Shown here: in pieces, positions 5,010-43,248 of the stretch
Layout of the letters: the number at the start of each line of letters is the position of its first letter
How positions within the stretch are numbered: the stretch's first letter is position 1
NCBI RefSeq assembly: GCF_000003815.2
Contig: NC_049993.1
Span: 11,121,026-11,185,025, forward strand
Reading direction: 5' to 3'
Length of the DNA stretch: 64,000 bases
Origin: Branchiostoma floridae
Taxonomy: Eukaryota; Chordata; Leptocardii; Amphioxiformes; Branchiostomatidae
Notes under the pieces: model-generated
Told to the model about the DNA's origin: nothing
The model's database searches: none
The model's input: only the letters and a program-made list of their open reading frames with translations
Made by a program: the position numbers and the translations under genes

Positions 5010-5015
5010 CATTTC

Positions 5016-15200: not shown

Positions 15201-18200
15201 GGAAACAACTAAAATTAGAGTTTTTTACTATCCACTATACTTGTAGACTTTCTCTATACTTCTTATCTCGACTGTATCTTCCACTGCTATAAAATTAATC
15301 TGTTCCACACTGTTCCACCATGGCACAGTGAACTGTATGACTCAGACATTGGTCTTAATAAACTTCACATTCACCAAATGAAAAGCAGCTTTACAAAACC
15401 TCTCAGGACGCCAGAACATCTATCAATGACTACTCTTTTTTCACTGCCAAGTCTGACATCTGGTTACCCCATTCCATAGAGTGTATCACTGTCAAAGGTC
15501 CATCAGGGTATGGGGTACATGGACAATAGGCAATGGGGTTATCAGAGGTCGTGGTGGTTTGAAAACTGACATGTTTGTAAACATCCAAATTGGCAGGAAA
15601 CCAAGGAAGGGGGCTTGGCACAGACAAACTGATTTTGTGCCAAAGTAACAAAAGGTTATCAAACACAAAGAGACAACAAATCCGCTAAAGCTTGCATTTA
15701 CTTGAAAACTTCACGATGTATGTCCAAAAGCAAACATGTGCCAAACACTGCTGCTAAAGGCTATCTAATCTGGCATTCATAACTGTGGTCACAAATGATA
15801 TGTAGTCTATGAGTGATATCCTGTCCTGCAGGAAAAGTAAAAGTTCCAGAAACTTACAATAAGTTTTCCCCACAAGTTACAAGTTTCTACATCTTCTATT
15901 CATCTTGTTAAAATGTTCTCACCACAGCATATGTCCCAGCTCTATGGAGTAGCATCTAATCTTCCAGTTGAGTAGATATTTTATCAGCAGTACAAAAGGG
16001 CTATAGGGGATGATGCCTCAGCGTCAAGACAGAATAATGGATCCATTCTTTTCTTTTATCATAGTTTGCCAAAAAAACAGATTGAGAGATTTACCTGATA
16101 AGTAATTGGATTTGTCTGGCCTAATGACTACCTGTCAAGATCCATGCTTGTCCCTGTCACTGAGGGGAGAAGGACCCGAGGTGGGATCACTTCCCCAGAC
16201 TTGGGTTAGAAGGTAAGAAGGTTACTCCAGTTTTTTGTGACAGAAACGTTACTCTGAAGAAAACTTCCATTACTTGGCAAGGCAGCGACCAGAAGGGTAG
16301 GGTTACACTTCTGTGTGGTGAAACTTGCCAAGAGTTCTTTTCTCTGTTAAAACTCTGGCAGAGAACGCAGTCTGTTTCTCCATAGGGTTAAAACCAAGGT
16401 GGTTAAGGGTACATCATTTCTGGAACTTTATATGCCAAAGGGAGGAGATAGTCTGGCAATTTAATATGTTGCAGGCACTCGCTTTAAAACCTAGACATTA
16501 AGCTGTCAGAAATGGGAACACTTTCTTCACTAAGAGACTGTCTGGAAATTTGTGATGGAACAACAAGAAAAGTAGTTCCTTAAAAAAATTGCATTAGCTA
16601 GGCAGTCATTTAAAGCAATGTACTTTTGACTCTATCTTAGATTAAGGTACAATTCAAGTATATCTTGAGCAAATCCACTTTGTCAGACACTTGGCATAAA
16701 AGGCTTTGTGGAGAGGTATTTTTACAAAGTCTGTATTCGTCCTAATTCAGGCTGTCTGCTGTGTCTGGCTCGGGCAGCCCCCTGCTGTAACCCACCACCA
16801 CCTGAATACTGATCAACACCTGCGGGATTCTTCCTCCAACTTCCAGTCTGGAAGACTGGTCTTCTTACTTCAGTGTCTTGACCTTCCTTATATAACTGTC
16901 TTGCACGAAGTCTACGTTCACCAAGGGATTCGCCTGGCACTTCTAATAAGACTATGCATCAAGTTTCTGAACATGAAATTGAAAAAAAAAATCCAATGGT
17001 TGTGTTAAGGGACAAGCTGTGCTGTCTACAAGTAGACATCACAAGACTAATTTCCAGACAAATCTCTCAATCAATAAATATGCAAAAATTGTTGGGATAA
17101 ATCAAAATTATTGATTTCAATATGACTACCAGTCTATTTTGAACCTCCCTTACTTTCTCAGCCGATGAATTCACTTATATTATGTAACTAGTGCACATGG
17201 ATACATATCAAACATATCCAACCTGTAAATAATCATAAAATGGGTACACAAACTTGCATTTTTTTTAATCATTCTAGACTGCTATCAGCCTATCTGGCCT
17301 CACATTTCATATTTCAGTCATATTTTCAACTGTAGACTCTGCATCAATGGATTCTTTTTTAACCTTGGAAAATACATAAATCAGATATTCTTGGTAAATC
17401 TCATAAAAGAATCTTTTTGAGATTTATCTTGTTGACTTCTTGTGGTAGACATGTATGAATTGCTTAAGACAAACAGAATGTAGATTAATGTTCATCTTTC
17501 AATGTCACAGCGGCAAACTTCTTATTTACTTCCCTTCCAGCATGTCAGCATGCCTACAATCATCAGAACCTCCAGGAACCAACCTTCCATTGGACAAACA
17601 GATCCTGCCATTAGCAGACAACCCAGAAATGAGTCAAAATGGTCATTAATCACTCTTCAAGTACACAAGGGTTATGGGAGGTTACCCCTTTTGTTGTAGG
17701 GGGTTACGCCTTTTTCACAGACACCACTGTCCTTTTTCTGAGACCAATAAATGTTGGTGACGGAATCTATCTTACCATAAGCTGCACCTAGAAACCAGCT
17801 GGGTTTGAAAAGGGAAGAAATACCACCATGCTATTTGACTGGGTCAAGGCCTCGCATGGCCTTATCAATCCACAGCCAGAGAAACTAGGCCAGGGCGAAA
17901 CACAACCCACATGTTCCAAACCAGCAAGAATATCATGCTCCGCCTAAAGCCATATATGTGCTTCACTAACCTTTGACAGTCCTGTCCAACAAGTCACATC
18001 AACTATAAAATCTCTCAAAAAAAGATATGAAAAATACGAGAAAACTTGAATAACTTAATAAGGCAAAATAAGCTCTTACAAGAACTAAAATGAATACCAC
18101 AAGGCAGAGTTACTGGTCAAACAAGTCAGTTAAAATTGTCTATCATTCAATGAAACCTTGAGACTGTACTGTATAGAACCAGACAGATAATACATAGATA

Positions 18201-18889
18201 TTATCTATCATATCCATTTCTGTGATTTTCTAAAAGTTGCAGTTTAACAGCCTCACACTGCATACATGGACTGAGAGGAAACTTCCACTATCTCTAGGAA
18301 CTTACAGACAATGCCTTAGAATAGTAACATTCTCAGTTTTAACTTAAGCCCAGTGACTTTGGTCCCAAATTGTTGCATGTCAGTCAACACATGCCATCTG
18401 CAACAAGCAGATATCTACTGATAACCTAAAAGAAAACCATTGACCTTCATGGACTCAAGAATGTAAAAGGCAGTCCAGCCAGTTTGGTCTGTCACCCACA
18501 ACATCGTGACACATGTCAAATTGCTGTCTTCCAAGCTAGTGTTGAACATGGTATTTCACTGTCAAATGGGAAATGCAACAAATTTCAGTTATCACTTATC
18601 TCATACGTATCTAAAATGTCAAGGTGACAAAATCATCTCATATGTATTTAAAATGTCAAGGTGACAAAATCATATATAACAACATCAGATATGCAAAAAT
18701 GTTGACACACACGTGTGCACACACACCATACCTCTGAAGACTACAGTTGTAGAGATGGTGAGGGGGTGGGGGTAGATTATCATCATGCCTAGAAAAAATT
18801 GTAAGACTAACAGACACAGAATGGCCTTACAGTGGAAGAAAATTGTCAAATGAAAATGCTGGACTGCCCCTTCAAAATTTTACCTAACG
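9256..18889. other. Gene-free stretch left of NFI exon 2; possible regulatory DNA
   Basis: No coding exon could be supported. I looked on the minus strand for NFI exons after the 532-nt exon, including the activation-domain segment that follows it in vertebrates, and found none. Patches of complex sequence without repeats occur at about 10185-10335, 12480-12730 and 12990-13160 and differ from the surrounding A/T-rich DNA. They could be conserved enhancers, but nothing in one sequence proves this. A 37-bp direct duplication (tctaaaatgtcaaggtgac type) lies at 18600-18673. Confidence 0.4.
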
Positions 18890-18989: not shown

Positions 18990-19133
18990 TCGTACATTAC
19001 ACACACATCCAGACTTCCAACTTTCTACACTGTCAGCCATTCCAACTATCACACCCGGCGAGCCCTGTCCAGACACGCCTGCACACCTGCGTGGGCACTG
19101 TCACTTTCACACAGACTGAGCAGGACGTCCTAC

Positions 19134-22100
19134 CGTGCTGCTGCATGTATCCGGCCACAAACAGGTCCAGCTCCCGCACCGATATGCTGATGTGGTGGGG
19201 CTGGACGCAGATGGTGGGGTGCGTGCAGTTGGCCGACTTGACCAGCCGCTCCCCGTCCGTGCTCTCCAGCGGGATGCCCTTGAACAGGATGACCATCACC
19301 AGGTCCAGCCGCCACACCTTGTCGGCCTGGCGCAGGCAGTCGATCCTCCGCATCTTCCCCTTCTGGTCGGGGTTGGACATGACGCAGCTCGGCGGCTTTT
19401 TTCCCGTCACGCTCAAGACAAAGTCCTCTCGGTACTCGGGCCGGATGTCCTTCCGCAGCTTGGCCAGGAGCCGCGACGCCCACTTCTGCTTCACCTCCGG
19501 CTTCTCGCTCAGGAGCTCCTCCTTGACTTGACGCTCCTCCTCGGGGGTCATCCTCTTCTCGTGCTTCTTGTAGTACTTGCGTTTGCGCGCCTGCAGGTTG
19601 AACCAGGTGTACGCAAACGACTTGACGTGAGGCAGCGGAGCCTCAATGAAGGGATGGAACTCGTCCTGAACAAGCAAAAGGAAGAAAAAAAGACAAAACG
19701 TCAGCCATATGTCTACATCCCTGACATGAGACACACAAGGGATTGAAATCAATATCTGTCTGAAAGACTCTTTGGTAGAGGGAAGGCGGACCTTCAGTTT
19801 GAGTTTGTGTATCCTTTGGCCATTAAGGGACCTAAACTTCCTTGCCATAAACATATCATAGAAACCTATGGATGATAAAAGCACAGGTATTTGTGTAGGA
19901 TCACCATACTCATCTGTGATAATAAATTACAGTACATGTATCACCATATACATACACTACTAAGTATATAAGTACATGAGTTTGTTTTGTTAGTTTGTAT
20001 TAGTGCAAGTTGATAGGTAGGTTCTCAAGAACAGGATTGGGCATATATCGGCCAGGACACATATAAAGAACTAAGTCATTAATGAGTAGGTTACCACAGA
20101 ATTAAGGAATTGCAAGAGAAAGTTATTTGAGTAAAAAAATACCACTGAGCGCTTATTTTCATGACATATATCGACTTCTAAAAAATGTAATAGTTTTGCA
20201 GCTATTATGCTTTTATTTGAAATCAGGATGGCGCCATATGTGATATTGATCAGTAGTACATAATCAGGACCCAGTCTAAGGCTTGACTGACTGATATTTC
20301 TGGAGTTCTTTTCTCTGCACAACATATGGGGGAAAACAATGTGGGGTCGTGCCACGTACTCAAGAGTTCCCAAAACATCCAAATTCCAAGGCGTCCCCAA
20401 GTCGTTCAAGTTACCTAAGAGGTGCTGGCATCTCGTTTAACATTTTGTGCCTCATATTTTCTGTGATCCGTGATGGCCGCGCGGGGAGGGGGCGTGTCCC
20501 GCTTTTCTCTCGCACGAGACACTTGCGATCATCTCCGGAGACAATGCTGTCTGAGTCACCGGCCGCGGGATCGCGTTACGCTTCTGGTACGGCACAGAAC
20601 CGCAGGAATTTGAGAAAATAGGAGGATGGCAGGAAGCTGGGAGGAGATGGCACCAGGGGACGGCAAACAACACAGGAAGTTTCTGAACTTGACACTGGGA
20701 GGAAACTCAACAAACGTAGGTTGAGCCACATGCCTCACTCAACAAACGTCAGTGTCGCTACGGCAACGAACAGGTTGCCATGACAGTGGAGACATGGTAG
20801 AACGTGGTACATGCATGGTTGCATCAGATTCAGGAATGGTGGATTAAGGTATAACTGTTACTTACGTAGCAGCCTGCAAGGCAAAAACTGCTTTAACTTT
20901 TCCCAGGTTTAAACGGAGTAAAAGAATATGAACATGCAAATACGATAAAGTTTAAAAAATTAGTGCTTTTCCCCTTCTCGAAAAATATGCAGGTAAGGAA
21001 TTTGTAGACTTTTCCGTACAAAGAGAAATATGCCACAAAATAATACAGATCTATAGCAGTCTTGACACACTTTCAATTTTGTAAGTAATAAATTTTTCAC
21101 ATGCGGGAGAATTGTCCCATGGGACACATTCCACTTGACACAGTGTCTGCAGTTACATCATAATGTGCCACACTTTCACTTTCAGCGTAGCTATGGCAAT
21201 CTTCCCTCTGGTTTGGAGGTCGGCCAGGTCAAGATAACTACTATGGTAAGACAGTAAACCGGGTCCTTTTGGGCTAAGGTTAGCCAAGCAGTCCAACCAA
21301 CCATGGATCCAACCCAGCATTCTGGTGACAGGAAACAATGAATAATATGCCAGAAAATCATTCTCATAATTTTGACATTTTGTGAGTTCATATTTACAGC
21401 TGCAGATTTGACATGGGCACAACTTGAAATTTTTCCCTTCAGTTTTTTTACAAATATAATTTTAAGTTGCTAACGCTACTTGTCTCAAAAAATTATTACT
21501 TCAAAATCATGCTGATGGTAAATATTTTCGACTGGTGTTTTCCTTTCATCTGTTGCTCCATTTGTATTGTATGAAGAATGACAACTGATCCTAAAGGTAG
21601 CCAATAAACAAAAACAGCTGAAAGTAAAAGGACTACACCTTAATAATTTGTTTTCATATAATATTAAACTAGAAAGTCATGATCAAGCGAATTAAGAATA
21701 TTAACGTAAACAACTTCAGAACGTAGCGTTACGTATAATCCCACAACATATAGAGCTCGATCTAAGCCTTTGCCGGTCTTCAAGGCAGAGGAAAACCGCT
21801 GACATATCGCGAGGCAGTGAAAGTAATTTTGCCCAATGAGTCAGACGCACGTCGCATTAAATGTTAGTGGTGGGGAGGGGGGCGTTGTCTCGTCACGTAC
21901 AAACCGTCGCCTACAAAAATGGCCGGTTAACACCGGGACGGTAGCACGGGACAGTCCTTGTCACGGCAGTTTCGTACCAAAAATTCACGAAAGATGACAC
22001 GCTAGACAACACATGAAGTACATATGATACGTATGGGGGTGGGGTGGGGGGTGACATGCCCACACGTAAACAACAGCACGTCGCACTGCGCACTGGTGCC

Positions 22101-22286
22101 AAGGACGAAGTTGGGCTGATCCAGCGGGACGTGCCAAGAAAGCACCGGCCTCCCCCTGCCAGTCCCATCGATCGCCGGCGCTATCGATGAAGCCCGCCGT
22201 CCTCGCCAGCGGGAAACTTTCCAACCAAAAAACACACAAAGCTTGGCCGAAATTCCACCCACTATTAGAAAACTTACCATAGTCAT
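19134..22286 (-). CDS. NFI: Nuclear factor I (NFI), coding exons 1 and 2
   Basis: NFI is a nuclear transcription factor that binds palindromic TTGGC(N5)GCCAA sites as a dimer. Exon 2 (19665 down to 19134, 532 nt) starts after a ttgttcag acceptor and ends at a G|gtagga donor. It encodes the family's DNA-binding core: DEFHPFIEA at its start, then [20 protein letters not shown], the [20 protein letters not shown] segment, [18 protein letters not shown], and [20 protein letters not shown]. The length of 532 nt is that of vertebrate NFI exon 2. Exon 1 ends at 22278 (ATG|gtaagt); its in-frame codons read Met-Thr-Met, so the start is probably 22286 (good Kozak context), giving a much shorter N-terminus than vertebrate forms. 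The frame stays open upstream but has no ATG; a 6-codon uORF lies at 22313-22333. Later exons are not in the window or fall in the gap. Other first exons may exist. Confidence 0.95.
19666..22277 (-). other. NFI intron 1
   Basis: The 2.6-kb intron between the short first coding exon and the DNA-binding exon. It has a G/C-richer patch at about 20340-20840 that could be an alternative promoter or regulatory element. Open frames there are short, overlap on both strands and resemble nothing known. Confidence 0.7.
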
Positions 22287-22700
22287 GGTCTTGGATTTGG
22301 CGCCCGTTTTGGCTAACGGACCTGCAGTCGCATGCCGTGCTGCTGTCGCTCTCTGCTCGGGTTTACCCCAGCTCCTGCCGCAGCGATCGCGGTGCAGACC
22401 GTCTGGGAAGTCAGCTGAGCGAGGCCTCAGCCGATCGATTCTGAAGGAAACCCACGATAATGCCCCAGTTGAGGACTCGTTGGTTCTGGATTCTCCCAAA
22501 CTTGTGCTGTGGCGTAGTAAAAATACTGATTCTGTGTTGTGCAATCTGTTTTGCCACCACAACGCTGTTTATTTCCGTGTCGCCACTGCTGCGCCGCCTG
22601 TCAATCAAGCTGGCATCCCGCCAATTAACGCTGAAGCGGTTTAATAGGAGGAAAGATCTATCAAACCAGAAAAATGATTAACTTTACGGGATGGATTATC
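22287..22700 (-). promoter_or_regulatory. Likely NFI 5' leader and promoter region
   Basis: G/C- and CpG-rich sequence (about 22070-22450) surrounds and precedes the first coding exon, in contrast to the A/T-rich surroundings. No TATA box is seen at a sensible distance, so initiation is probably of the dispersed CpG type. The exact start site cannot be set from the sequence. Confidence 0.45.
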
Positions 22701-25700
22701 AACGATTATATTGCATGCAGATTAGTATGATTCATGTACTGCTTACTGATCGCATATTCTATGCGGCAAAAATTCTAATATGCACCTATGGTGCGCAAAT
22801 AATGCGGGTTTAAAAACTATCTGAAAAGTTTTAAGACAGGTAATTTACATATCTCTTGCCTCCTAATACATCAACTTGAGGCGTATCCTTTCACTTTTTG
22901 GCTCCGCCTGCTTCTTCCTTATTGGAACAGAGCCAAAATTACTGACCAATCAGAGACCGTAAAAGGCGACTCACCCCCTAGGGTGATTGACATGAAGGAT
23001 GGGTGACGTTTGTCGATTCTCTGGCGAGAATACCTACTTTGATCAAAACTGTAAACATAACTTCTTTCTAGAAGTTTCGTAGCTGTGCGAAAGTAATACC
23101 AAATGATGAGGCGGGGGCCAATAGAAAATTTTTCGAGCTACTTTTTGTCCGAGGTACGTGATGTTAGCTCTAACTTTTTGACAGTAATTCCGCCCTGGGC
23201 CTTGTGACGCAGTTTCAAAGTTAGTGGCAAATCCCCCAATAGACTTGTGACGAACTTTATAAGTCGTGTGGCGACTTCTCGGACGTGACCAGAGTTGGAC
23301 ACATAAACAATCCGGTGCGGTTAGCTGAAATGGCTGTAAAGCTTAAGCGGCACCGTGAGACAATGGGCATTAAAAGTAAAAGGGCAAGACAAAGTTTTTA
23401 GGAAACGTTTACTTTTGTGGCGGGAAGTACTGCCAAAGCAGGAACTACGGTATTTTACAGTGACATCCCACATAATAAGCGCCATATGAAATCGAAAAGG
23501 TTATAGTCAAATGAAACCTCCTTGAAGCAAGTCCTTGCTTGAAGAAACCAACAGAAAGCCAAAATTGCTAATAAAACAAGATATTTTTGACAACACTGAC
23601 GCACATTTTCGGCCATTTCCGTGTCGTATTTTCAGTGACAAATTAAAACAAGCTGTCAAAGGCCATCAGTTAATTTGCCTAAATGCCAGCCGACAGAAAA
23701 TAAGACGCTCGGAAATATAAAAGTGCATTGCTTGTTTATACATTGCGTAATGGTGCATGAGACCTTCCACCCTGTTTACACATTGTTGCCATGCATTGCA
23801 CGTGCTGGCATTAGTCCAGTTTCCCGCCAAATCAACACCGCTGGCCACGCCCCTGCAATCAGTGGCCGCAAGCCGCTTTCAGCTGGTCAGTATTGGACAG
23901 TGCCAGTACGGAAAAATTGTAAGAGGAGCCTCGGGATTTCTACTATGTAACTGTTACCTAACGTTCATACTCATACGAAAGTTAGCTATAAACATGCCTA
24001 TCCTTATCATAAGTCTACAAGGAGAAATGAATGGATGTAACGTTATGTGCTGAGTGTTATCATTCAATAAACTGCATAGCTCGACAACAAAACAACCAAA
24101 AGCTTGCCTCTCGAAAAACACATTCCTTTACTCAACGTTTAAACTTGTAAAAACATGTTTACGGGTCATAAAACAAGAACGTAGTCCATTTCTACTTAAT
24201 CTATTAGCTTCTCATACATGTTCCAACTGTCACTGCTTTTAAACGGTCTATTTATATATAACGTTAACTATTTTATTCAGAAATTTAATGTTATGTGCTG
24301 TCATCATTTGATTGTATTAATGGTTTGTTCCTGTATATGTATAGCGTTATGTATATGTATTTGGTCACAATATCAGCTAGTTAGCTGCCTAGTGTACACT
24401 TTGTATTGACCCTGTTGCAACTTGAATAATTCGAATGAAAGTCAAATTTAAGTCTACTTCATGAATTTGCAACGGAGTAAACACAACGGTTAGCGAAATT
24501 GTGAGACATGTAGCTGTAGTAGCTTTGACTTTCGTATAAAGGACAATAACGTCTGCCCTCTGAGGGAAATTTACGACTAGCAAAAAACCTGCCCACGGAC
24601 ACAGAGTAAAGAAAAGCCAAGCAAGCCTGAGAAAGTCACCGGGAAATCCAAGATTGACCCTTCCCAGAAAACCGGATTTCAACGTTCTCAAACTTCCACG
24701 AAAAACGATACTTCCGCTCGCTTCGAGTGCCGCATACTACACCCTTGGAGGATGCAGATGTTTTCATTTGACAAGAGTTGGGAAACATCTGGAAGTTTTC
24801 CATTCGCATTGCGGTGACGGAGCGAACTGTAGTGCAGCTCTGGTGAACTTGAAAAAGTCAAGCTTACAGGTTTTCCGGATTCCGTTCACGTACAAGCCAC
24901 ATGCTTAGTCGGCGGCTTGTTTGCCGGAATGGTGATTTGTTTCTTCTCGTTCACCTCAATGACACAAACGTTTGTTGCAGTACCAAGGAAGTAAATTTAA
25001 CATGGATAGCATCATGATTATATGGATGAATGCAGCATATGGCCTCTAGCGACGGTGCGGTAGAATTATCATATGATTGTTACATAAACGATTTGCTAAA
25101 GTCTATATGACGTTATATAAGCTTAAGTTATGTTGTGTGTTAACGTTATCGTTCTAAAATTGGCTTTAATCGTAAACGCGTTACCATCATGCCATACATA
25201 TGCAATTCATTGTTGGTAAGTCTAGTCATTTACAATCCGATTGCGATTACATACCGGGTATGTTTAGGAAAGGTAAACTGGTGCGATAATTCAAATGAGG
25301 TTTCCTGCCTTTTCGCCCTGCATGTCATCTTTAACTCTTTTATCTATCGAAAAATGGGACTTTGTGAACAAAATGTCCCACAAAACACACACCCCTTGGT
25401 TTATGGAATGCCCTTCGTTCAAGTGTATTTTTGTGGGGAGAAAATTGCGAACAGACCGCGCGCCTTGACTTCGCCCCACGGGGCACTGTTGACGTGTATC
25501 ACCGTTTCAGTCGGTGACAGGTTGACCTAGATCTCACCTGGCCACCTGCCAACCGTACACACCTGTCCTTCAGCAACACAACACGACACGTCAGGCAACA
25601 AAAGTACTCGCCCCACCATCACGCCACGTTTGTTACCTTTGTAATTTACTACCCCTTCCACAACCCTAGCCTACGAAAAGGGCTTCCACAGTGGAAAGAA

Positions 25701-28091
25701 TACATACCATACGGATTCTGTCAATCGAGTTCGAGTTGAAAATAAGGCCTAGGCAAAATCTTGACCTACTCGATAATTGAAGACATCTGTGAGTGTCGTA
25801 CTTTTTGGACCACGTTTTGGCTTGGAATTTTGGCGGGATAAAATACCAAATCAAAACACAGTTTGATATCATGAGTGAAAATGGATATTGTTGTATGATC
25901 ACGGTAGTGCCATGCTTTCCCGTCTTTTTTTTAAATAGCATTGACTTTATGACATTTGTATTAGTTTATATGCATATGCATTGTAATAATTGACTGCATA
26001 GAGAATGTTCTGTTGTTTGCCTGATATTCTAGTGTCACAAGCCCACGTCAGTCGTCTCGGCAGAAATTATTCTACAATTTCTAGGTGTCCTGAAAGTGAC
26101 TGAACCTATACAGAAAAGCAAAAACTTGAAAACTAAATAATGAAAAATAAAACTTGTTAAACAGTCAAAAATTTGTAAAAAAAAAACCTCTGTCATGATG
26201 GATACTAGCGAGCTTACTTTAAAACCACTGTTTTTCAACTACAAATGTATTTGGAAATGCATATTTCATTATTTGTGTACACTTAAAGTTCTAAAAGTAA
26301 AATGGTAAATTTTTTCTGTTTTGATTTTCGTGTTTTTAGTCTTTGATGCAGCACGGCCCTGGAATGTCACGCGTGTGTTGTCTGTCTCTCACTGGAGCAA
26401 TGGAAGCAATACATATAAAGACTGGCTCCACTATAGTATACTAAACGGCGCGAATCATCCCATACATTATTACATAGCTGTCCTTCTTCCCAACAGCAAC
26501 TGCTCTGTTCTTCACCGTGCAGATAAAACACGCCACCGTTTGGGGCGTCACTGCCATCACAGTCGGGGAATGTCAGCTATCTCTCCCTCTCTCAACTTCG
26601 ACTCGGTTAGAGACACACAACCGTCGCTTCTTCAAGCTATCCGTCTGTTTCTCAGGCATGTCAGCACATTACTACAACCCGCTGGTTGACTTAACCAATG
26701 CTTGATTGAAGTGAAGGGAATTTCGCTTTCACTGTTGCTTATTTTGCAAGTAGTGAAACCATTTGTGGTATTCTCTCATTTCCACAGTTCGGAATGCAAG
26801 CAAAAACCACTGACAGTGCAACAAGTAAGTGGGCGTTATTATTTACACAGGCGGTAATGTATAAGCGCCGCCTAGCAGACATAATTCCAACTGCACCGAT
26901 GTATACGCGCGTGATATGTACTATTCAGTTCCATTCACTTGCTTTATCAAGCATGTCATCAATTCAACGGAGATTTGTAATGAGTCTGAGAAAGATATGA
27001 AAGCAACAGCAAGTTCATGCCTGCTGGCCGATTTGAGCTTCTCATGAATAAACTAGAGTTCCACGACCCCATACCTTCGCCAAATGATTTGATCTTTTAC
27101 TCAACTAGCAAATTGCACGCATGAACAAAGCTATTTAAGGCAATCACTTAACACCAACACGTTATACTGAAAATCAAAATACATGCATTTCATGCTCATC
27201 TTTTACAAAGTGCATTGCTCTCAATAATCTATACAATTAATTCTCCTGTAAATTTGAAGCAAATTCTATAAATTGGAAACTCAAGATAGAAAGTTAACGT
27301 TTGCTTGAAACTCAGAATTTCTTCACAGCGCATGTGCTCCACTATTATATTACAATGGTACATGATACACATCATGATTGCTGTAGTTAAATGTCCATTT
27401 CAAATATGCAAACATACAAAGATGTACCACAAGTGCAAAAATACAAAAGACCTTGTCATACTTCACCAAGAAGACTTGGCAAGAAGAGGCACAATCGCAA
27501 CCAGCTTTTCATTATTCATAATCACTTGGTAGTACCAAGTGTGCAATTAGGCCTATCACTTTCTCTTACACAGTCAGTAGTCTGAAGAAAAAAAACTGTA
27601 ACGTTACTTCTTACAAAATGACATGTCATTCTTCAAATCTCAAAAAACAATATTTCATGGTAGGACAAGAAATAAACAAAATCATTCTTTCTTAAAATTC
27701 TTCATTCTGTAGTCAAACTTCTTCTTAATAACTTATTCAACTCATAATGTAACTCTTTCCTATTTTCATGTCCTCTCATAGAGCTCTTATTCTTACTGAT
27801 TCATTTCTTCTTATATATACACCAAAGGTTTTTTTTTTACCAGTGGTAATAAATACACCCTGTTGTCCTCACACCACATTATCCTATAGTTATATATTAG
27901 CTCTTCAACTTGATTTTTATGATTGCATCAATTATAAGGAAGTGATATCCAGCAATAACAGCTTTTACAGAATATAATAGCTTCTACTTTTTTAACATAA
28001 ATGTATCAATACCTCTGTCTTATGACTATGAAAAAAGGAGCCATTCATTGTCTTATGAGAAAGAAATAGTGCAGGTAGCTTAGCTATTCTT
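22701..28091. other. Intergenic stretch between NFI and ZDHHC21
   Basis: No coding exon is supported on either strand. A patch at 26340-26700 is less A/T-rich and follows a polypyrimidine-AG at its left end, but its open frame (about 122 codons) has no motif and no donor consistent with a neighbouring exon. The rest is ordinary A/T-rich intergenic DNA. Confidence 0.45.
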
Positions 28092-28355
28092 CTATGCAGA
28101 GCCTCGCCCTCTCCCACGACCAATACAATAATGTGCTGTGTGCTGCAGAAGACTGCTGAACTGGACTTCAGTTTCCACTTTTGTGGGTGTGGCTACTAAA
28201 CAGCTGTCAGCCAATCAGAGAATGAGCTTTAGAAAACATTTAGGTTATTCTCTGATTGGCTGACAGATGGTTAGAGGCCACACCCCCAAAGGCGGAAACC
28301 TCAGCCCAGGGCCTCCCAAAGGTATATTGTATACACCAAAGCCGATGCTGCATAG
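28092..28355. mobile_element. Foldback element with long inverted arms, 264 bp
   Basis: It begins ctatgcag and ends ctgcatag. The arms pair over most of their length: gtttccacttttgtgggtgtggc on the left matches gccacacccccaaaggcgg on the right, and ctgtcagccaatcagagaat is the exact complement of attctctgattggctgacag. The loop is about 20-25 bp. It has no coding capacity and is a typical MITE or foldback. Confidence 0.8.
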
Positions 28356-28940
28356 GAGCAAGTGCTACCACAGTCTGTGGTCATGGCTGTATGGCAGTCA
28401 AGTATGGCTGGTAAACTTTTACATCTATCTATCCCCATAATGTAACCAACCTGACTTTCCATTGTCCTTAAGACCTTAATTTTGAAAAGTTATCTTGTGA
28501 CAACACTGTCTGTACAACAGCTTCATCAAGTCATTCTCTATTCTACATAATTTTTTAATGGCTAAATTGAAAAATGCATATACCCCAGTACAGCACATTC
28601 AAAAGTGTAGTATCATTAAGAAATGTAGATACAATGTTAGAGCCGTATACACACAGCCATAGTGGTCTAGTTCTGCAACTGTAGTTCATATTGCTGACAG
28701 TAATTTTCACATTTATACACATGTACGTAGTCATAGTACATTGATTACAATTAGATTAGGAAAGTCAGATTGCAAGAAAGTTTGTAGGAAAATCAGCTCC
28801 ATTTGTCTGTAGTAGGTGCACTAGTCAGGTGCACCAATAAGCTAAAATGTTGAAGTCCCTCCTGAAAACGAGGCATAGCTATAAGATTTTTTGATTCCTA
28901 GCAGCCATGGCTTCTTTATGATTAATAATTCCATCTACAT
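28356..28940. other. Noncoding stretch downstream of ZDHHC21
   Basis: A/T-rich sequence between the foldback and the minisatellite. It is probably 3' flank or 3' UTR of ZDHHC21. No convincing polyadenylation signal was picked out. Confidence 0.4.
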
Positions 28941-29510
28941 GTGCCTGTAGTAAGAGCCCCTACGTGTGCCTGTAGTAAGAGCCCCTACATGTGCCTGTAG
29001 TAAGAGCCCCTACATGTGCCTGTAGTAAGAGCCCCTAAATGTGCCTGTAGTAAGAGCCCTTACATGTGCCTGTAGTAAGAGCCCTTACATGTGCCTGTAG
29101 TAAGAGCCCTACATGTGCCTGTAGTAAGAGCCCTACATGTGCCTGTAGTAAGAGCCCCTACATGTGCCTGTAGTAAGAGCCCCTACATGTGCCTGTAGTA
29201 AGAGCCCCTACATGTGCCTGTAGTAAGAGCCCCTACATGTGCCTGTAGTAAGAGCCCCTACATGTGCCTGTAGTAAGAGCCCCTACATGTGCCTGTAGTA
29301 AGAGCCCTTACATGTGCCTGTAGTAAGAGCCCTTACATGTGCCTGTAGTAAGAGCCCTACATGTGCCTGTAGTAAGAGCCCTACATGTGCCTGTAGTAAG
29401 AGCCCCTACATGTGCCTGTAGTAAGAGCCCCTACATGTGCCTGTAGTAAGAGCCCCTACATGTGCCTGTAGTAAGAGCCCCTAAATGTGCCTGTAGTAAG
29501 AGCCCCCAGC
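28941..29510. repeat. 25-bp minisatellite, 23 copies, overlapping the ZDHHC21 stop codon
   Basis: A unit starting gtgcctgtagtaagagc is repeated 23 times from 28941 to about 29510, mostly with a 25-bp period; four units are 24 bp. Unit variants (ending ccttacat, ccctacat, cccctacat) run in the same order in copies 5-8 and 15-18, so a block of about ten units was duplicated. The copy nearest the gene (29487-29510) encodes the last residues of ZDHHC21, with the stop at 29481-29483. The remaining copies lie in the presumed 3' UTR. It is not a CRISPR: there are no unique spacers and the genome is animal. Confidence 0.95.
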
Positions 29511-32500
29511 CTGTGCTGTTATTGCCCGTCTCCTGCGCAGCGGCCACAGCCAGCACAGCACATTCTTGGTCCCACAGATATCCGAGAAGGCCTCGTGGAT
29601 TGCACGTGGACTGGGTCTATGGGTAAAAAAAAAGGCCAGCTATAAAAGTTACCCAAATGTTCGACTGAACAGCTCCAGTCCAATTTTAGTGTTGGAAATT
29701 GCAATCTAACTTTTCCAGAATGTTTCCTACCAACACAGATGAACTTTCAAGTTAAGGTATAAAAGTTGATAACCAGGCTTAATCAATGTTGATCTACTGT
29801 TAATTTCATGATTTTTTTCTATTCATTTTACCACATTTGTGGAAGGATTGACAAAGCAGGTGACCATCACCTATTGGAGAATGAATGAATGAATATTTAA
29901 CTTGATATACCAGCAATGTTTAACTTAACTCTTTGCTGTAACATTGCAATACTATATGTGGAAAAACAATGCAAGTCGATGCAGTTTGTGGAATCATAAA
30001 AAGACAGTGACTACTTACATTCCTGATCTGAAGTAAGGGTCTGCCAAGTTTTCCAGTGTTGTTCTATCCTGGAGTAGGAGAGAGAAATGTGATACGTTTA
30101 CTACTGACTGGATGAGAGGAACTATCCTCTAGATGTCCCTCGTAGGAGTGGTTATCGTATAGGTAGTATTCAGCATTTGATTATACTGCTGCTGGGATCC
30201 CTGACACAGGGGTAGGCAGCAGTCGGCTAGTCTTCACACCATGCTTTCTTGTGGCCCTGCTCTAATAAATTTCCCTCAGATCCTTTTTTGGGAAGCATTT
30301 GAGATGGCCATATGACTGAAAGTAACATATGATTTGCCTCACTGCATACACCACCAGACTTAAACAATGTTTTACTACATAAGTTGCCTGTGTTCAAAGG
30401 ACAAATTATCTATAAAAAGGTACTAAGAGTAACTAAGATGAGTAAATTTATATTTCTGCTGCTACTTACATGTATAAAAACTAGGAAAATACACATTTTT
30501 AAAATGTAACCAAAGTCCTAAACACCACAAGTCTACAATTAACTCACTATGAGGATGTTGAAGGTTTGTCCGAATACAAGACCAATAGCTGCAGGGAAGA
30601 AGAGCACACCCTGTCCGCAGGTGAACCATAGCAGGGGGCGGGTGTAACTGTACGGGAAAATGTCCTGCAATAAAAACATGATTTTTGTTGTTTAACTGTG
30701 CATTAATTATGTAAATAAGGTTTTTAACATGTGATCATTATATGTGGTCATTGATAACATCCTGCCACTCAACTGTGGACCTTCATATGGAAAAACATAA
30801 CTGCAAGACAGACCCAAAACAAAACCTCCCCGTGAATTAGTAGCCTCCTCCATTGACCCTGTGACCTGTCATGTCTGATACCTCCTGTCACTCGCGCAAG
30901 TCCGACCTTTGCAGTGGCACCTCGGACACAGGCAACAAACCATTTAAAGGGTTTGATCTGTTTTACTGGCGCATTTCCATATTACATTTCCATGGGTTCC
31001 GATATGTACTAAGTACATCATGTTTCATCAATATTTGTGTAGTTTTCATTGAAGAGGTTTATAGTTCTGTTTTTCTCCATTCAATGTTTCTTTACCTTTT
31101 TGCAGCAAACAAGATTGTTAACAAGTTTGAGAGTACTTTTTGTCCCATCCATGACAGAAAAATTAACTATAAACAAACAATGAGGTAAACATCCTAAAAG
31201 GTGACTACCGTATTGCAGTAGCTGCACGGCGGTGAGTAGTAGAGATGGAGCACTGCAAGTGCAATACTCATGGAGACCAGTATTAGGGTGTAATACAGGA
31301 GCTGCATGAAGAGCCAGTGGTTTTCCTCCCCTACACAGTTGTTAATCCTGCAAAACACAACATATGCATAAACATGACACAAATATTGAGCTAGAGAACA
31401 TTTCTTTTAAATGTTTGTCCCACAATGATATTTGGAATGGCACATGTATTTTCAATGGTTCTGAAGGATATCATTGATCACATACTCAAGAAAAGAAAAC
31501 TGAAGGAGTACGACCATGCACTGGGACCAAACTATCATACAAGGAACCGTCGAGGGAGGAAGAAAGATGGATAGACAACAAAAAATATGGGAGGATGATA
31601 TCACAGAATGGATAGGCACACGACTAAGTGAAATATTAGATAAAACAGAAAACTGGTTGCCCCAACAGTGACAAAGTTACACTAAGGGATAGATGAGATG
31701 ATGAGATGTGTACTTACCATGGACAGTGATGGTCCATTTTCCGGACACACTGCTGACATCTCCTGCAGTGGTGGGAACGGGGTGGTCTCCTGATCTGACA
31801 CACTTTGCAGATCGTCCAATCAGCAGCCTCTGTTTCAAAGACACATTTAGTTAAACACTTCCCAATTGCAGCAAACATGATTTCATTTGTGAATGGGTGA
31901 AGGAGAGGAGAAAGAAAGAGAGACAGAGAGAATGAACTGATTACATTTAGGCTCCTACATGCCATTTTGTAGTAGTAGTAGTACATAAATGTACCATTGA
32001 GAATGTGCAACACAACTCACCAATGTCTTCACCATTTTCATCATCTTTGCAAGAATAATAAGTTTGGAAAAAGAAGCAGTCAGAATAAAACCGTAGTTTG
32101 AAAGGCAGCAACCATGGAAAAGAAGACCTAAGCTAAAAATGGACTATGCCAAACTAACTGTTACATGATTACAGTACTAGTACCTTGACCATCAATAGTA
32201 ATCATACATTCCTCATCTTGAACTGTACATACACATCTAATGTCACAATTACGGATGAATGTTGTATTCTTACTAAGATGTTGTATCCACAGGAAAGGTT
32301 CTCCATAGACATTGTTATTAGGGTAAATGTTTTTTTCTTTGTTTTTTTCGCTGCTCTACTGACCAACAGCGGATGGCTGGATGTCCAGTGGCACAGTTCC
32401 AGGGTTGGTGGTCACTGATAGGTACAGACACACCACCGTCATGATGGACATCAGGAAGTAGACTAGAGATGGGACAACAAAAATTCTGTTAGTATGACTA

Positions 32501-33422
32501 TAAAGACAAGGGTTTGAAAAAATTGAAACATAGAAATACTTACATTTGTGCAGTTTATACCTGTGCAAATGTTGTGATATGTTAAGATAGAAAAGCTTAC
32601 TTTTTGACTCCTAGCTAAAACATTCAGAGTTATACAGGGCTCTAGCCAGCTCAAATTTTTTTTCCGTCAGCCAATTCCCATTGTCGCGAAAACACTATTC
32701 CAGGAGTTAGAAAGAGTCTGAACTGAGACCTTGAAAAACTGGTTTTAATGAGATTATCGTATGCGAAAGGGCGCCGACACACATCGTCAACAATAATAAC
32801 AATAGAAAAACAAACAGTGTGTGGCTTTTACGGCCATGGACAGCGTCCCCAAGCCGCCTGTAGCTTCCACCAAGGATTTTTGTCCGTCAAGGTTGACGGA
32901 TTGGTTTTAAAATTTTTCCGTCACACGCAGCAAATTTCCATCAATTGACGGAAAAACGGACGCTGGCTAGAGCCCTGGAGTTATATGTAGTATGTGTAGG
33001 TGGTTTGTATGAGGGTAGGAAGCTTGACTATCCTATATGCCAAGTTTTCTAAATGTAATGTGAAATTTTCAATAACATTTTGCATTACAATTTACATAGC
33101 AGTTACTTATAAGTTATAATTACAAATTATGCAGAATCAAAATGGCAGCTATTGGAAAAATAAGGAAAAGGTCTGCAAACTTACAGATAAGGGTTCCTAA
33201 CGGCAGCTTGCCATCATAGTACATGGGCACGATAACGAGGCTGGGGATGAACGCGGTGTTGTACGCCCAGATGAAGGAGATGACTCCGAGCGCGCACCAC
33301 CCCTGGGGGTCGTACAGGAAACGTACGCGGACCCCGCACGGCAAGCGAAGCCTGGACCCCTCCCACATGGTTCCTGGACACTCACACAGTGTAAGGAGGT
33401 TAGACAGGGAACCTGCTGGCAT
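29481..33422 (-). CDS. ZDHHC21: DHHC-type palmitoyltransferase, ZDHHC21-like
   Basis: A membrane S-acyltransferase that attaches palmitate to cysteines of target proteins. Exons run 33368 (or 33422)-33185, 32462-32364, 32044-32021, 31829-31718, 31347-31209, 30664-30548, 30068-30019 and 29616-29481; all junctions are GT-AG and in phase, giving 286 residues from ATG 33368. Seen: DPQGW near residue 20, four hydrophobic segments (about 25-45, 62-82, 150-175, 198-222), and the Cys-rich domain with CKVC, HHCRRC, then DHHC at 135-138 (Cys138 would carry the acyl group) followed by [15 protein letters not shown]. The short C-terminal tail, DPHGW-like start and neighbour NFI favour ZDHHC21. An in-frame ATG at 33422 adds 18 residues but has weak Kozak context; the ATG at 33368 has A at -3. 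A 24-nt microexon and the minisatellite-encoded C-terminus are unusual. Confidence 0.88.
31390..31710 (+). mobile_element. LINE 3'-end fragment
   Basis: It lies on the plus strand, opposite to ZDHHC21, in the intron between the DHHC exon and the next one. One frame at about 31583-31671 reads [13 protein letters not shown], then TRLSEIL, and ends in a stop. This is the pattern of the C-terminus of non-LTR retrotransposon polyproteins (WEDDI..W.G..L). Upstream frames are broken, and a short gatgagat-type tail follows near 31690. It is a dead 5'-truncated copy. Confidence 0.55.
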
Positions 33423-33769
33423 GGAGGCAGCCCAACCCACCTGCAGATGATACGGGCACTGAGAGAGATAAAGAAGATTGAGGTTACAAGGTAGTCTTGT
33501 GGTTAGGATCAACCTACAATCTAAAGGTTAACGTTGTAATAGTAAGTATCATTATACATTTGCATCCTATTTCACTGCTGTGCCCTTGGGAAACACCTAT
33601 GCCCTCACTCCATTCAGGTGAAAATAAGTTACATTACCTAGCTCCATCAGGAATGTCCTCTCATATGAGACATAATAATAAAGTCAGAAGCCCTTGTTTG
33701 AGGACAGTCACATCTCAAGCACGTTTAAGAACCCAAGAGAAGGGGTCAATTAATGCACACTGCACATGA
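33423..33769. other. ZDHHC21 5' flank with a SINE fragment
   Basis: A possible 5' UTR acceptor (ctgcag) lies at about 33441 on the minus strand, so the ZDHHC21 leader may be spliced. A plus-oriented piece at 33579-33640 (gtgcccttgggaaa, then cctcactccattcaggtg) matches the body of the SINE at 5405-5722. Confidence 0.45.
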
Positions 33770-33866
33770 CATTAAAAGTAGCCGCGTACGACTGTTGGTT
33801 ATCGATGTTGGTCGGAAGCTATATCATAAAGCGATAACCAACAGTCGTCCGCGGCTACTTTTAATG
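33770..33866. repeat. Hairpin with 35-bp arms
   Basis: Arms at 33770-33804 and 33832-33866 are reverse complements with one mismatch (t/g at the tenth base from the loop-distal CpG cluster), separated by 27 bp. The sequence is probably a foldback insertion. A young age is suggested by the near-perfect arms. Confidence 0.85.
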
Positions 33867-34446
33867 CACAGTAACTGTTGCAGTGCAAAATTGGTGTGTT
33901 ATGCCTACTTACTTGTCATGCGGTTTAAAAGTTATACACACAAAAACAAACAGATGACGGCAACATGCAACAGGACGTGATAAAGCAATAACAATAATAA
34001 TGTAAATGCACGTTAGACTGCGACTAGACTAGGTGCCGGTGCCCCCCTCCCACACCGTTACAAGATTTCAAAACATCTCATACGGTCTAGATTCTCTTAC
34101 AGTACAATTCACTGGTTTTATAGACCTTAAAGTAGAGAATTTTGCACTGAAATCGAACACTATCTTACCTTTATAACAGTTCAACAAGAGCGTTGAGGAC
34201 TTTATTGCAAGTATCAAAATTTCTTGCGGTATTTGTCCGCCATCTTTGTTTTGGTTAGTAACAATCAGCGCATCCAAACGCACATAATCTATATACATGT
34301 AACATACTGCATAGAATAAACATTTCGTGCAATATATTAAATTGTTTGGTGATGACCAATTAGACATATTATCAAAATTGGCGGAAAGTAGTCGCCCTAT
34401 TTTTATCTCACACAAAGCCAAGCATTTATTTATCTATATCACCACG

Positions 34447-34519
34447 ATGTGATGCTTTCATCATTAACTAGTTCAGTTAGTTCAGGAAGCTAGTTAATAA
34501 AGTTGAAAGCATCACATTG
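34447..34519. repeat. Hairpin with about 25-bp arms
   Basis: Left arm tgtgatgctttca...attaactag pairs with right arm ctagttaat...tgaaagcatcaca. A small bulge sits mid-stem and the loop is about 18 bp. It resembles the other foldbacks in the window, with no coding capacity. Confidence 0.7.
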
Positions 34520-35169
34520 TTCTTCGTAGTCATATAGTTATGGATTTTGTAAGGTGTCAGATAAAGATAGCGGGACGTATTTTCCACATATGTAAAATTG
34601 ATTATATGGATGACATCCGCGTGCGCATCAATTTTCTGCCGTTTCCAAATTTCAAAACTAAAAAAAGTTTTCAACCATTTTGCAACTCGTAGAAAGCAGC
34701 AAAACAAGCAAATATATACCGAGGATTTCGACAAAAAAAATCAAAAACGTATACTAATGTCATACAATATTTCAAGGTCAAAGAAGAAAAATGAAGAATC
34801 TATTGCATGATTGTTCGGTATTACTAATCCTGTGCGCTCAGTCATATGTCCAACTCCCTGACCACTTAGATTTTATAATGAAGGCAACTTTTTGGCGAGT
34901 TAAACTCTTTTATTCGCACTCTTGCTCAGGTTTTGGGGTCCCAACAGATGCCATCCATATAATCAAATCAACATGGCCTTATAAGCGTAAATATAGTCAA
35001 AGAGCCATTGTCAACCTTGTGTTTCTTTATTTAAAAGCCTACGATTGCCTTTCGACTGACTACTAGTAGCGTTATCAAGTTTACATATGGGTGGTCCATT
35101 TGAGATCGGCTTGCAGGATCACGCATAGAACTTAAACTGAACTTTTTGGTTTGTCCCTGACTGTGCTTC

Positions 35170-35370
35170 CTAGGACGTAATTGTGAGGTAATTAGTAGTA
35201 GATTTCCCCTTAAGGGATTCATATTGGCGATAATCAATCATGGGTAACATGCCCTGCATGCACCAGTCGGCAATGCATCCTTCACAGGTTTTTGAGTAAA
35301 TGGGGGTGAGGGAGATTGTTCTGAGGTTCTGTGGGCGGGGCGGATTCTCCTTTGGGATCGGCACAAAGTA
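35170..35370 (-). pseudogene. Degenerate LINE reverse-transcriptase fragment
   Basis: On the minus strand one frame reads PIPKENPPRPQNLRTISLTP, then IYSKTCEGCIADW, and later DYRQYESLKGKSTTNYL. This is the finger-palm entry of non-LTR reverse transcriptases (PK...P.DLRPISLTP..SK..E, then QYG..KG.STT..L). The frame breaks shortly after the STT motif and no flanking domains remain, so it is a dead fragment. Confidence 0.75.
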
Positions 35371-36608
35371 GGCTTTCTTACAAACTACAGGAGACGCATA
35401 CTAGTATGGGTGTAGTATATATTGATATGGGTCCCTTGCTGCAACTCCTGGTTAATAATTGATATGTATATAGATATGGACTTGTTTTCTTTAGTCGATG
35501 TGTCAATTCCACATGCTAATATAGAACATTTTTCCGCCAAAATATGGTCATTCTGCGGTTGACATATTTAACGTTATATCCCGAAGGGCGCATGTCATCT
35601 TTTTTTTTCGAAATCATTAAGAAACAAAACTGACGAATCCAACTGAAAGAGCAAATTAAGTATTTATTTGGTGACATTGTGGACATGTGGTGTGAATCGA
35701 AAATTTTAGATATTTGATCAGTGTGGCCACTAATAACTCCATACAAAAACTAAAAATAATAGGCCTGTACGATATTCTATGGTATGTACGTGAGCGGCAG
35801 AAAGTAGTTTCATTGTCTTCGGTGTAAAGGTATTCTGTACGCGATGTTTGTCTTTTATTGTACATAGAGCTTCATAGATATTAGAGAACAACGTTGCTTC
35901 TGATTACGACAGAGGAATCACATATCCCATGCATGTATCCTACTACAACGCATGCGTAATTAAGGCACTGGCATGACAACCACCACGGAGGTATTGTTGA
36001 GAATCTCCCTGCTCAACCGTCACTGTCTTTGGTACAAGAATATTGAATGATACATTGATACAGAAATGTATCTTAGAATAATAACATTCGCATGGCTCAA
36101 AGTGAAGCAAACTTTGAAAATATGTACCAACTAGCTAAACGTTTAAGGCTCCTGAGAAGTTACTAACAAGGCGGTGTCATCCTGAGATAAGTGCTTAACG
36201 CAATATTGCTTAGAGATAAGCCTAATTACAAACTTAAGATCATACCTAAAAATAACCCTGCCGAGTATATAGCTTCATCGCTAAACATGTGCATTTCATG
36301 CACTGACATTATCGTCTACACAATGGAATATATATTAATAAAAAGTTTCTTGAAACTTTATGAAAGAAGTCTTCTCCTTTTTTTTCATCCTTTCACACAA
36401 ACTAGATTCAGTGTTCAATGTGACCAATAACAGCGACAGCCCTTGCTTTACAAGCAAATAGGACAAAATTCGTGCTACAAATTCCCATTTCGTCAGAATG
36501 GCTCATTTATACCCATTCCACTAGGGCAGCGACCAAGGCTGAACGAATTTCAAAGATACAAAATCAAATCTGTTTTTCACTTTCTGTGTTTTCCTGTCTT
36601 TTTATACT

Positions 36609-36614
36609 TTTATT
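36609..36614 (-). terminator. Polyadenylation signal of the TGF-beta-family gene
   Basis: AATAAA on the minus strand about 140 nt beyond the ligand stop codon, in a sensible 3' UTR position. Confidence 0.45.
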
Positions 36615-36755
36615 GCATGACAATGTTCAGATCGTAAAATCATGGGTTACGCAGCGCGATCGCCGTCTAGTGGACTGGGTATTTCCATAGTGAGAAGTAT
36701 TTCATGCTGATTGCTGGAAGGTGCTATTTCTTCTTGAGGGGTGGTCAGGTGGTGT

Positions 36756-39700: not shown

Positions 39701-40687
39701 TAAATTCTACTATTCCAATAACTAAAAAAATCAAGGATACGTCCATAGTGACTCACCGTGACTCTGATTTGAAAGCCGATGTCACTGACTTCCTGCGCAT
39801 GCGTTCTTGTCAGCCAGGTCTTGACGGACTTGGCGACTCGAAACACGTCGTAGCCGCGTTTCTTCAGCTTGGACGCTCGGAGAATCTTCCACTCAAGGGC
39901 CTGGAAAACAATACAAGGGAGTGAGGGAGGGGAAATAGATTCGAGATTTTGATCTTCAAGGTAGACCTTCCTAACGAAGGAGGAGACATAGTTGAGGTAG
40001 TAGGGGGGTTGGGGGTAGGGGCGTAATACCCTCTGATTTTAGAATTGATCTCGGAAGAATTCCTAATTTCGAAGGTTATTGAGTGAAAGTGCGATTAAAA
40101 GTAAAGGAAAGTGACTTTAATCAATGCACAATCCATATACATGTGCCGTAGCGAAGAAGCAAAGCTAAAAACACAGCGTCCACGAAAATTAGTTAACAGA
40201 TCAACGGTTGAAATTCTTTACCAGGGAAGCTAGAAATGTCCAATTTTACAAATTTCCCATCATACCAAACTGTTGTGCACAAGGCAATACCAATAGTGAG
40301 CGCTGATACTTAAAAGAAACGCTCTAGAAACTTTTGTTACCTCTTCTCTGACCTTTCCGTCCTTGTCTATTTCGTGTACAGCGACACGAAGTGGGTAATC
40401 AGGCGAACTGCGGCTGCGCCGGGTCAGCACAAGTTCAACGTAGGTCGGCATCTCTTCCAGGTCAGCCAGTCGGAAGTTCAGAAACCCGGTTTGAACCTTG
40501 GAAGTTCCTGTAAACAATAAATATCATCAGTATAATGATCTGTGCCTATAAACACTCTAATGCAAGAAGAGAGGGTTAGAAAACTATTTGCAGACTTTTG
40601 TGTTTATGTGTCGAATGAAATGTGGACATAATTCGGCTGATCTCAACAGAATGAAATCGACTCATTATTGCCAACGGACTAGTTTGC

Positions 40688-40726
<39 letters not shown>

Positions 40727-42433: not shown

Positions 42434-42542
42434 GCTGACACGGTCAGGTAAGAGCGTTTTGGCGATCACACGGGACAAGACAAGCTGTGCTTGCAAACAC
42501 TGCTGTCCGAGTTATGACTGCTGACTGCGACAACAAGCCGAG

Positions 42543-42549
42543 TTATATA
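42543..42549 (-). promoter_or_regulatory. TATA box of the TGF-beta-family gene
   Basis: TATATAA on the minus strand, 110 nt upstream of the ligand ATG (42433). This would place transcription start near 42515 and give an ~80-nt 5' UTR with no ATG ahead of the start codon. A focused TATA promoter fits a developmentally regulated ligand. Confidence 0.5.
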
Positions 42550-43038: not shown

Positions 43039-43070
43039 TACATACATACATACATACATACATACGTTTT
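43039..43070. repeat. (CATA)n microsatellite
   Basis: About seven catacata repeats. Confidence 0.9.
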
Positions 43071-43248
43071 ACTGATCTTTACAATGCTATTTTGATATTC
43101 TAACATGCTTTATAGTTGACAGGCTATTTTTCAAGTTAATCACAAGATGTTTACCCGCTGCCGCTGGGATGAGATTATCAGAAATAAAATTAGAAAAATT
43201 GTATCTGTTCCTATAATGGCTTTTTACAAGACGCCTTCGCAAATTTTC

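What the first reader, a model, noticed from the sequence alone, without database searches (positions are those of the whole stretch)
19134..33422. NFI and ZDHHC21 neighbours, as in vertebrates
The sequence shows NFI and a ZDHHC21-like gene adjacent, both on the minus strand, with ZDHHC21 upstream of NFI. In human, NFIB and ZDHHC21 are adjacent on 9p in the same relative order and orientation. If the ZDHHC21 call holds, this pairing has survived since the chordate ancestor. Such pairs are often held by enhancers of one gene lying in or beyond the other.
Basis: partly seen in the sequence, partly recalled or inferred. Interest (0 to 1): 0.7.

Follow-up and report, generated by a model that had tools for sequence, protein, structure and literature searches.

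The report
Ancient NFI and ZDHHC21 gene neighbours
In this lancelet-like genome a developmental control gene (NFI) and a membrane enzyme gene (ZDHHC21) sit side by side, as in humans, most likely because both lineages kept the order of their last common ancestor.

Summary
The window carries the 532-bp NFI DNA-binding exon (19134-19665, minus) and an intact eight-exon DHHC palmitoyltransferase gene (33368-29481, minus), about 7 kb upstream of NFI's candidate first exon, with no Pfam domain on that strand in 20500-29400. The DHHC gene is best read as ZDHHC21: it matches human ZDHHC21 (recalled sequence) over nearly its whole length, keeps the phenylalanine lost in the mouse depilated mutant, and groups with ZDHHC21 in core-domain trees (UFBoot 93 and 90). 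The other 18 DHHC loci resemble other subfamilies by eye. NFI continues outside the window with exons in phase. A further test was also positive: a Cerberus/Dand5-like gene lies on the same chromosome and strand, 0.13 Mb from ZDHHC21. In human, CER1 shares the NFIB-ZDHHC21 interval; in mouse, Dand5 is listed next to Nfix. This points to a linkage older than the vertebrate genome duplications. The enhancer explanation is untested here; mouse data (one TAD, two enhancers correlated with both genes) are compatible. Other lancelets and outgroups could not be examined. It is a new example of a known phenomenon, ancient microsynteny.

The parts
19134..19665 (-). NFI exon 2 (DNA-binding domain), 532 bp
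22278..22286 (-). candidate coding end of NFI exon 1 (ATG ACT ATG, then GTAAGT, phase 0) in a GC-rich stretch 22.0-22.5 kb; a candidate, no transcript seen
19001..27000 (.). CpG-rich (presumed unmethylated) block over NFI exon 2, intron 1, candidate exon 1 and about 4.7 kb of DNA upstream of it: candidate NFI promoter and cis-regulatory region
   Evidence: two-state CpG segmentation; profile
27001..32750 (.). CpG-depleted (presumed methylated) block covering ZDHHC21 exons 2-8 and 2.5 kb beyond its stop codon
33185..33368 (-). ZDHHC21 coding exon 1
32364..32462 (-). ZDHHC21 exon 2
32021..32044 (-). ZDHHC21 exon 3 (24-nt microexon)
31718..31829 (-). ZDHHC21 exon 4 (DHHC zinc-finger core)
31209..31347 (-). 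ZDHHC21 exon 5 ([16 protein letters not shown])
30548..30664 (-). ZDHHC21 exon 6
30019..30068 (-). ZDHHC21 exon 7
29481..29616 (-). ZDHHC21 exon 8 and stop; carries the Phe aligned with F233
28935..29506 (.). 25-bp x 23 minisatellite whose first copy reaches into the last ZDHHC21 codons

Best explanation
The pair is an ancestral chordate gene neighbourhood kept in both lineages. Before the vertebrate genome duplications a single NFI gene, ZDHHC21 directly upstream of it on the same strand, and one Cerberus/Dand gene lay within roughly 0.1-0.2 Mb. After duplication ZDHHC21 stayed beside NFIB; the Cerberus/Dand gene stayed near ZDHHC21-NFIB (CER1) and beside NFIX (DAND5). The likeliest reason for persistence is that distal regulatory elements of NFI lie between the genes and within or beyond ZDHHC21, so that breaks there are selected against, ZDHHC21 being a passenger. 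Shown: the genes, their order, orientation and linkage in this genome. Inferred: common ancestry of the arrangement (the confidence below is for this). Hypothesis: enhancer constraint (about 0.45 on its own).
For: Intact genes, order and strand. Window protein to recalled human ZDHHC21: 98/264 identical, 200 bits; to recalled ZDHHC3: 66/270, 88.6 bits; to the lancelet paralogue L002: 72/267, 105 bits. The recalled ZDHHC21 has its DHHC Cys at 120 and Phe at 233, as printed for mouse (PMC2776530, passages). Core trees join window and ZDHHC21 at SH-aLRT/UFBoot 83.1/93 and 77.2/90. Human interval with NFIB, ZDHHC21, CER1, FREM1 (PMC3169541, passages); mouse Dand5 listed next to Nfix (PMC2265466, passages); Cerberus/Dand5-like gene at C15:11020773-11021054, minus. 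Mouse Nfib and Zdhhc21 in one TAD (PMC10291752, passages).
Against: Only one invertebrate genome was examined. Human sequences in the orthology test were recalled, not fetched. The Cerberus-like gene lies on the far (3') side of NFI with other genes between, and a BMP-like gene sits next upstream of ZDHHC21, where human has CER1, so the wider order is rearranged. The Cerberus-like domain scores slightly higher to recalled gremlin (177) than to CER1 (172) or DAND5 (167). Neighbours can persist by chance. No lancelet enhancer, contact or expression datum was seen.
Confidence: 0.72

Rival explanations
1. The adjacency is ancestral but has no functional cause: some gene pairs survive by chance. 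This shares the ancestry claim with the best explanation and differs from it in the cause only, so the two confidences overlap.
For: ZDHHC21 and most of the NFI body are CpG-depleted, as broadly expressed genes are in amphioxus, so a target/bystander contrast is not seen. Other local order has changed.
Against: The pair also stayed neighbours in human after the genome duplications; shared TAD and enhancer correlation in mouse.
Confidence: 0.4
2. The DHHC gene is not ZDHHC21 but another member of the ZDHHC3/7/21-like group, and the adjacency to NFI is coincidental.
For: The group is close: L002 on C14 shares WINNCVGE and its core scores 231 to recalled ZDHHC21, against 253 for the window gene. 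Core-tree support is moderate.
Against: Whole-length match; NHWLF.QL motif; L009 groups with ZDHHC3/7 at 94.2/98, L002 with them only weakly (83.6/57); Cerberus/Dand5-like gene on C15.
Confidence: 0.06
3. Convergence: the two genes became neighbours separately in lancelets and vertebrates.
For: No outgroup was examined.
Against: Chance about 1e-4 genome-wide (my arithmetic); same strand and side (human orientation recalled); a third linked family.
Confidence: 0.05

Closest known systems
Human 9p22 interval NFIB, ZDHHC21, CER1, FREM1
   Same: NFI and ZDHHC21 neighbours (gene list PMC3169541, passages), ZDHHC21 upstream on the same strand (recalled).
   Different: Lancelet: NFI candidate start and ZDHHC21 stop about 7 kb apart; the next upstream gene is a BMP-like ligand, not CER1; the Cerberus-like gene is on the 3' side of NFI.
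Mouse 8C3/C4 Nfix-Dand5
   Same: An NFI paralogue listed next to a Cerberus/Dand gene (PMC2265466, passages).
   Different: No ZDHHC21 among the genes named in the passages seen.
Ancient metazoan microsynteny attributed to cis-regulatory constraint (Irimia et al. 2012; seen only as a reference-list entry; paper not held)
   Same: A regulator gene paired over long times with an unrelated neighbour.
   Different: No regulatory element has been shown for this pair here.

Membership tests
NFI family | conserved DNA-binding domain (NfI pre-N plus MH1) | tested here: met
   Pfam; PDB NFIA/B/C/X
NFI family | further exons in phase with NFI-like motifs | tested here: met
   exon 3 GTVLSSDNFITSGVFGIAELQRITK, exon 4 TPIVQGGGVGNLTIGDLESPTYYSM; (human motifs recalled)
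ZDHHC21 | DHHC domain and whole-length similarity | tested here: met
   Pfam DHHC 112.3 bits; 200 bits to recalled human ZDHHC21 over residues 12-274 of 286
ZDHHC21 | groups with ZDHHC21 rather than other subfamilies | tested here: met
   recalled human sequences, core domain only, 14 recalled and 2 PDB human members, moderate support
ZDHHC21 | Phe233 (lost in mouse dep) | tested here: met
   alignment to a recalled sequence
Ancient microsyntenic pair | same order and orientation in two chordate subphyla | tested here: met
   human orientation recalled
Ancient microsyntenic pair | adjacency in other lancelets and non-chordate outgroups | not testable with these tools
   no other animal genome was on hand
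Genomic regulatory block | enhancers of one gene in or beyond the other; contacts | not testable with these tools
   mouse data only
Genomic regulatory block | bystander looks housekeeping, target looks regulated | tested here: inconclusive
   ZDHHC21 and most of the NFI body CpG-depleted; NFI 5' region and a 4.25-kb block over exons 3-4 CpG-rich

The most novel reading that the evidence does not exclude
NFI, ZDHHC21 and Cerberus/Dand form one ancestral chordate regulatory neighbourhood: elements in the 22-27 kb interval and around ZDHHC21 drive NFI and also reached the linked secreted BMP/Nodal antagonist, and the split of this landscape after genome duplication explains why CER1 stayed by ZDHHC21-NFIB and DAND5 by NFIX.
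Probability: 0.15. Interest if true: 0.65.

Novelty: new member of a known kind. Interest (0 to 1): 0.4.

Why it matters
If the pair is ancestral, it names a small, testable interval (22-33 kb of the window, with its vertebrate counterpart between NFIB and ZDHHC21) in which to look for very old NFI enhancers. With the Cerberus/Dand5 linkage it ties two vertebrate NFI paralogue regions to one pre-duplication locus.

Tried and rejected
Searches that gave nothing useful: NFI exon protein in viral contigs (6 pattern stretches, 0 relatives) and genome contigs (61 stretches, 0 relatives); DHHC protein in viral contigs (1 stretch, 0 relatives) and genome contigs (7 stretches, 1 relative, a DHHC-like match in a bacterial MAG contig); tRNA; Rfam at gathering threshold; NCBIfam (only a 0.27 hit below cut-off). 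Pfam on the minus strand of 1-18889 found no NFI exon at E<=1; exon 3 lies 13 kb outside the window. Paper searches for ZDHHC21 with amphioxus, and with microsynteny: 0 papers each. A search for recalled ZDHHC21 peptide strings: 0 papers. A regex for a DAN-type motif within the 184 kb first held: nothing; the Cerberus-like gene lies 30 kb outside that stretch. Searches for further human 9p22 neighbours (PF16184, PF12251, PF10300) and for further NFI copies did not complete.

Rejected: ZDHHC3/7 identity of the window gene. The BMP-like neighbour as the Cerberus counterpart: it is a TGF-beta ligand. The known Gdf1/3-like-Lefty pair (PMC10794066, passages): no second ligand was seen in Pfam scans of the minus strand of 33600-53300 and 54000-64000; the plus strand was not scanned.

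Full report
What is in the window. On the minus strand of 19134-19665 lies a 532-bp exon encoding the NFI DNA-binding domain: Pfam NfI_DNAbd_pre-N 9.6e-25 and MH1 5.3e-13. All 9 PDB sequences matched at E<=0.001 are NFIA, B, C or X. Outside the window, on the same chromosome, exon 3 follows in phase near C15:11,107,910 (GTVLSSDNFITSGVFGIAELQRITK) and exon 4 starts at 11,107,254 (TPIVQGGGVGNLTIGDLESPTYYSM). The first 19 kb of the window thus lie in NFI intron 2. A candidate exon 1 ends at 22278 (ATG ACT ATG, then GTAAGT), in phase 0 and in a GC-rich stretch; it was the only hit of my start-plus-donor pattern between 19.7 and 29.4 kb. No transcript was seen.

The DHHC gene. Eight exons on the minus strand from 33368 to 29481 splice with GT/AG borders into one 286-aa frame; Pfam DHHC 112.3 bits. 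The minus strand of 20500-29400 holds no Pfam match at E<=0.5. The plus strand of that stretch was not scanned by Pfam, only listed as ORFs.

Which genome. The window is G000:C15:11121026-11185025 of an unnamed assembly of 513,431,437 bases in 431 contigs.

Is it ZDHHC21? PF01529 rings at 23 places in the genome, which I group as 19 loci, the window included. I looked at exon translations of the other 18. By eye, against recalled motifs, they resemble ZDHHC3/7, 5/8, 9/14/18, 12, 13/17, 4, 6, 1/11, 16, 23, 2/15/20 and 22/24. Whole length: window to recalled ZDHHC21 98/264 identical (200 bits), to recalled ZDHHC3 66/270 (88.6 bits), to L002 on C14 72/267 (105 bits); L002 is nearer to ZDHHC3 (99/265) than to ZDHHC21 (81/260). 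The recalled ZDHHC21 agrees with two printed facts, DHHC cysteine at 120 and phenylalanine at 233 (PMC2776530, passages); the window has Phe at the aligned place. Core scores: window best to ZDHHC21 (253; next ZDHHC6, 205); ZDHHC21 best to window (253; next L002, 231) (15 of 19 lancelet loci scored, with L003, L004, L025 and L030, which look ZDHHC22/24-like, left out). Trees: window plus ZDHHC21 at SH-aLRT/UFBoot 83.1/93 with 5 of 19 lancelet loci and 77.2/90 with 10 of 19; the other nine were left out, five as short fragments and four unscored. The human side is 14 recalled plus 2 PDB members. In the second tree L009 sits with ZDHHC3/7 at 94.2/98; L002 joins them only weakly (83.6/57). Not all checks were tidy: several human cores (for example ZDHHC1, 2, 4, 16, 18) score best to L002 or L023, where other lancelet cores were fragments, and ZDHHC6 and 12 score best to the window core (205, 189). 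I judge ZDHHC21 identity very likely, not proven with database sequences.

Is the adjacency ancestral? In human the 0.65-Mb overlap of four deletions contains 4 genes, NFIB, ZDHHC21, CER1 and FREM1 (PMC3169541, passages); orientation is recalled. A mouse BAC holding only Zdhhc21 and Cer1 is described (PMC2776530). In mouse, Nfix and Dand5 are listed at consecutive positions -3 and -2 (PMC2265466, passages). This predicts a Cerberus/Dand gene near NFI before the duplications. The DAN family gives 5 places in the lancelet genome, one of them at C15:11,020,773-11,021,054, minus, about 0.13 Mb from ZDHHC21 on a 21.5-Mb chromosome. Recalled human CER1 and DAND5 both score best to it (172 against 131; 167 against 99), while gremlin scores best to L032 on C1 (346) (4 of the 5 places scored, L036 left out). 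Against this, its own best recalled score is gremlin at 177, by a small margin, and recalled NBL1 scores 144 to it against 137 to the fragment L035. None of the 8 PDB sequences it matches is a Cerberus; the best are gremlins at about 6e-17. Its place, on the 3' side of NFI with at least a Hes-like gene (my reading of an Orange-domain-like ORF) between, differs from both vertebrate loci. By my arithmetic the chance of one given gene falling within 0.13 Mb of a given place on the same chromosome is about 1 in 80, and about 1 in 2000 genome-wide.

How it may work. Amphioxus (B. lanceolatum) methylation is nearly all in gene bodies, rises with expression and runs against CpG density (PMC6292497, passages). 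A two-state segmentation of CpG against TpG+CpA finds a CpG-poor block at 27001-32750, over ZDHHC21 exons 2-8 and 2.5 kb past its stop, and another from -9999 to 19000, over NFI intron 2. A CpG-rich block lies between, 19001-27000, and CpG-rich DNA runs from 32751 to 54500; a 4.25-kb CpG-rich block also covers NFI exons 3-4 (-14249 to -10000). I read 22-27 kb as the NFI promoter and nearby control region, and both genes as broadly expressed; both readings are inference. In mouse, Nfib and Zdhhc21 lie in one TAD, and eRNAs of two of the four Nfib enhancers studied also correlate with Zdhhc21 (PMC10291752, passages). That is compatible with shared regulation in vertebrates; nothing here shows it in the lancelet.

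Is it in print? Within the held library, ZDHHC21 with amphioxus and ZDHHC21 with microsynteny gave 0 papers. A paper on amphioxus-human microsynteny around lincRNAs does not name NFI or ZDHHC in its main text (PMC6784235, term search). Irimia et al. 2012, a likely place for such a pair, is not held, so prior listing is quite possible. A single amphioxus NFI gene is in print (PMC1277823, PMC11193209, passages); my own search for further NFI copies did not complete.

Verdict. It is a new member of a known kind.

Noticed in passing
36756-36890, 37340-37507, 39225-39596, 41990-42511 (minus; borders approximate): A BMP-like TGF-beta ligand gene next upstream of ZDHHC21. The mature domain is split over two exons; best PDB hits are an activin A/BMP2 chimera, BMP6 and BMP2; the propeptide exons are tentative.
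   Followed up: partly
L018, C15:11199476-11203941 (minus): Two ORFs that look like an activin/inhibin-beta ligand (mature part and propeptide), so two TGF-beta ligands and a Cerberus-like antagonist would lie within about 0.18 Mb (read by eye).
   Followed up: no
28935-29506: 25-bp minisatellite, 23 copies at 97% match, whose first copy reaches into the last codons and stop of ZDHHC21, so the C-terminus might vary between individuals.
   Followed up: partly
32635-32977: A 343-bp MITE-like element with perfect 15-bp terminal inverted repeats in ZDHHC21 intron 1; a second copy is at C15:11084819-11085155.
   Followed up: partly
about 50957-52760 (minus): TLD domain (7.4e-18) and a P-loop GTPase-like ORF, resembling an interferon-induced protein 44-like gene (the name is recalled).
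   Followed up: no
54182-54754 (plus): Open frame with a heptad-like coiled-coil stretch; not identified.
   Followed up: no
L001:10001-10258: A contig filed as a Verrucomicrobiaceae MAG encodes a DHHC-like stretch (33% identity, 2e-15); possibly eukaryotic contamination.
   Followed up: no
1-64000 and fetched flanks: Sharp switches between CpG-poor and CpG-rich blocks seem to mark transcription units in this genome.
   Followed up: partly
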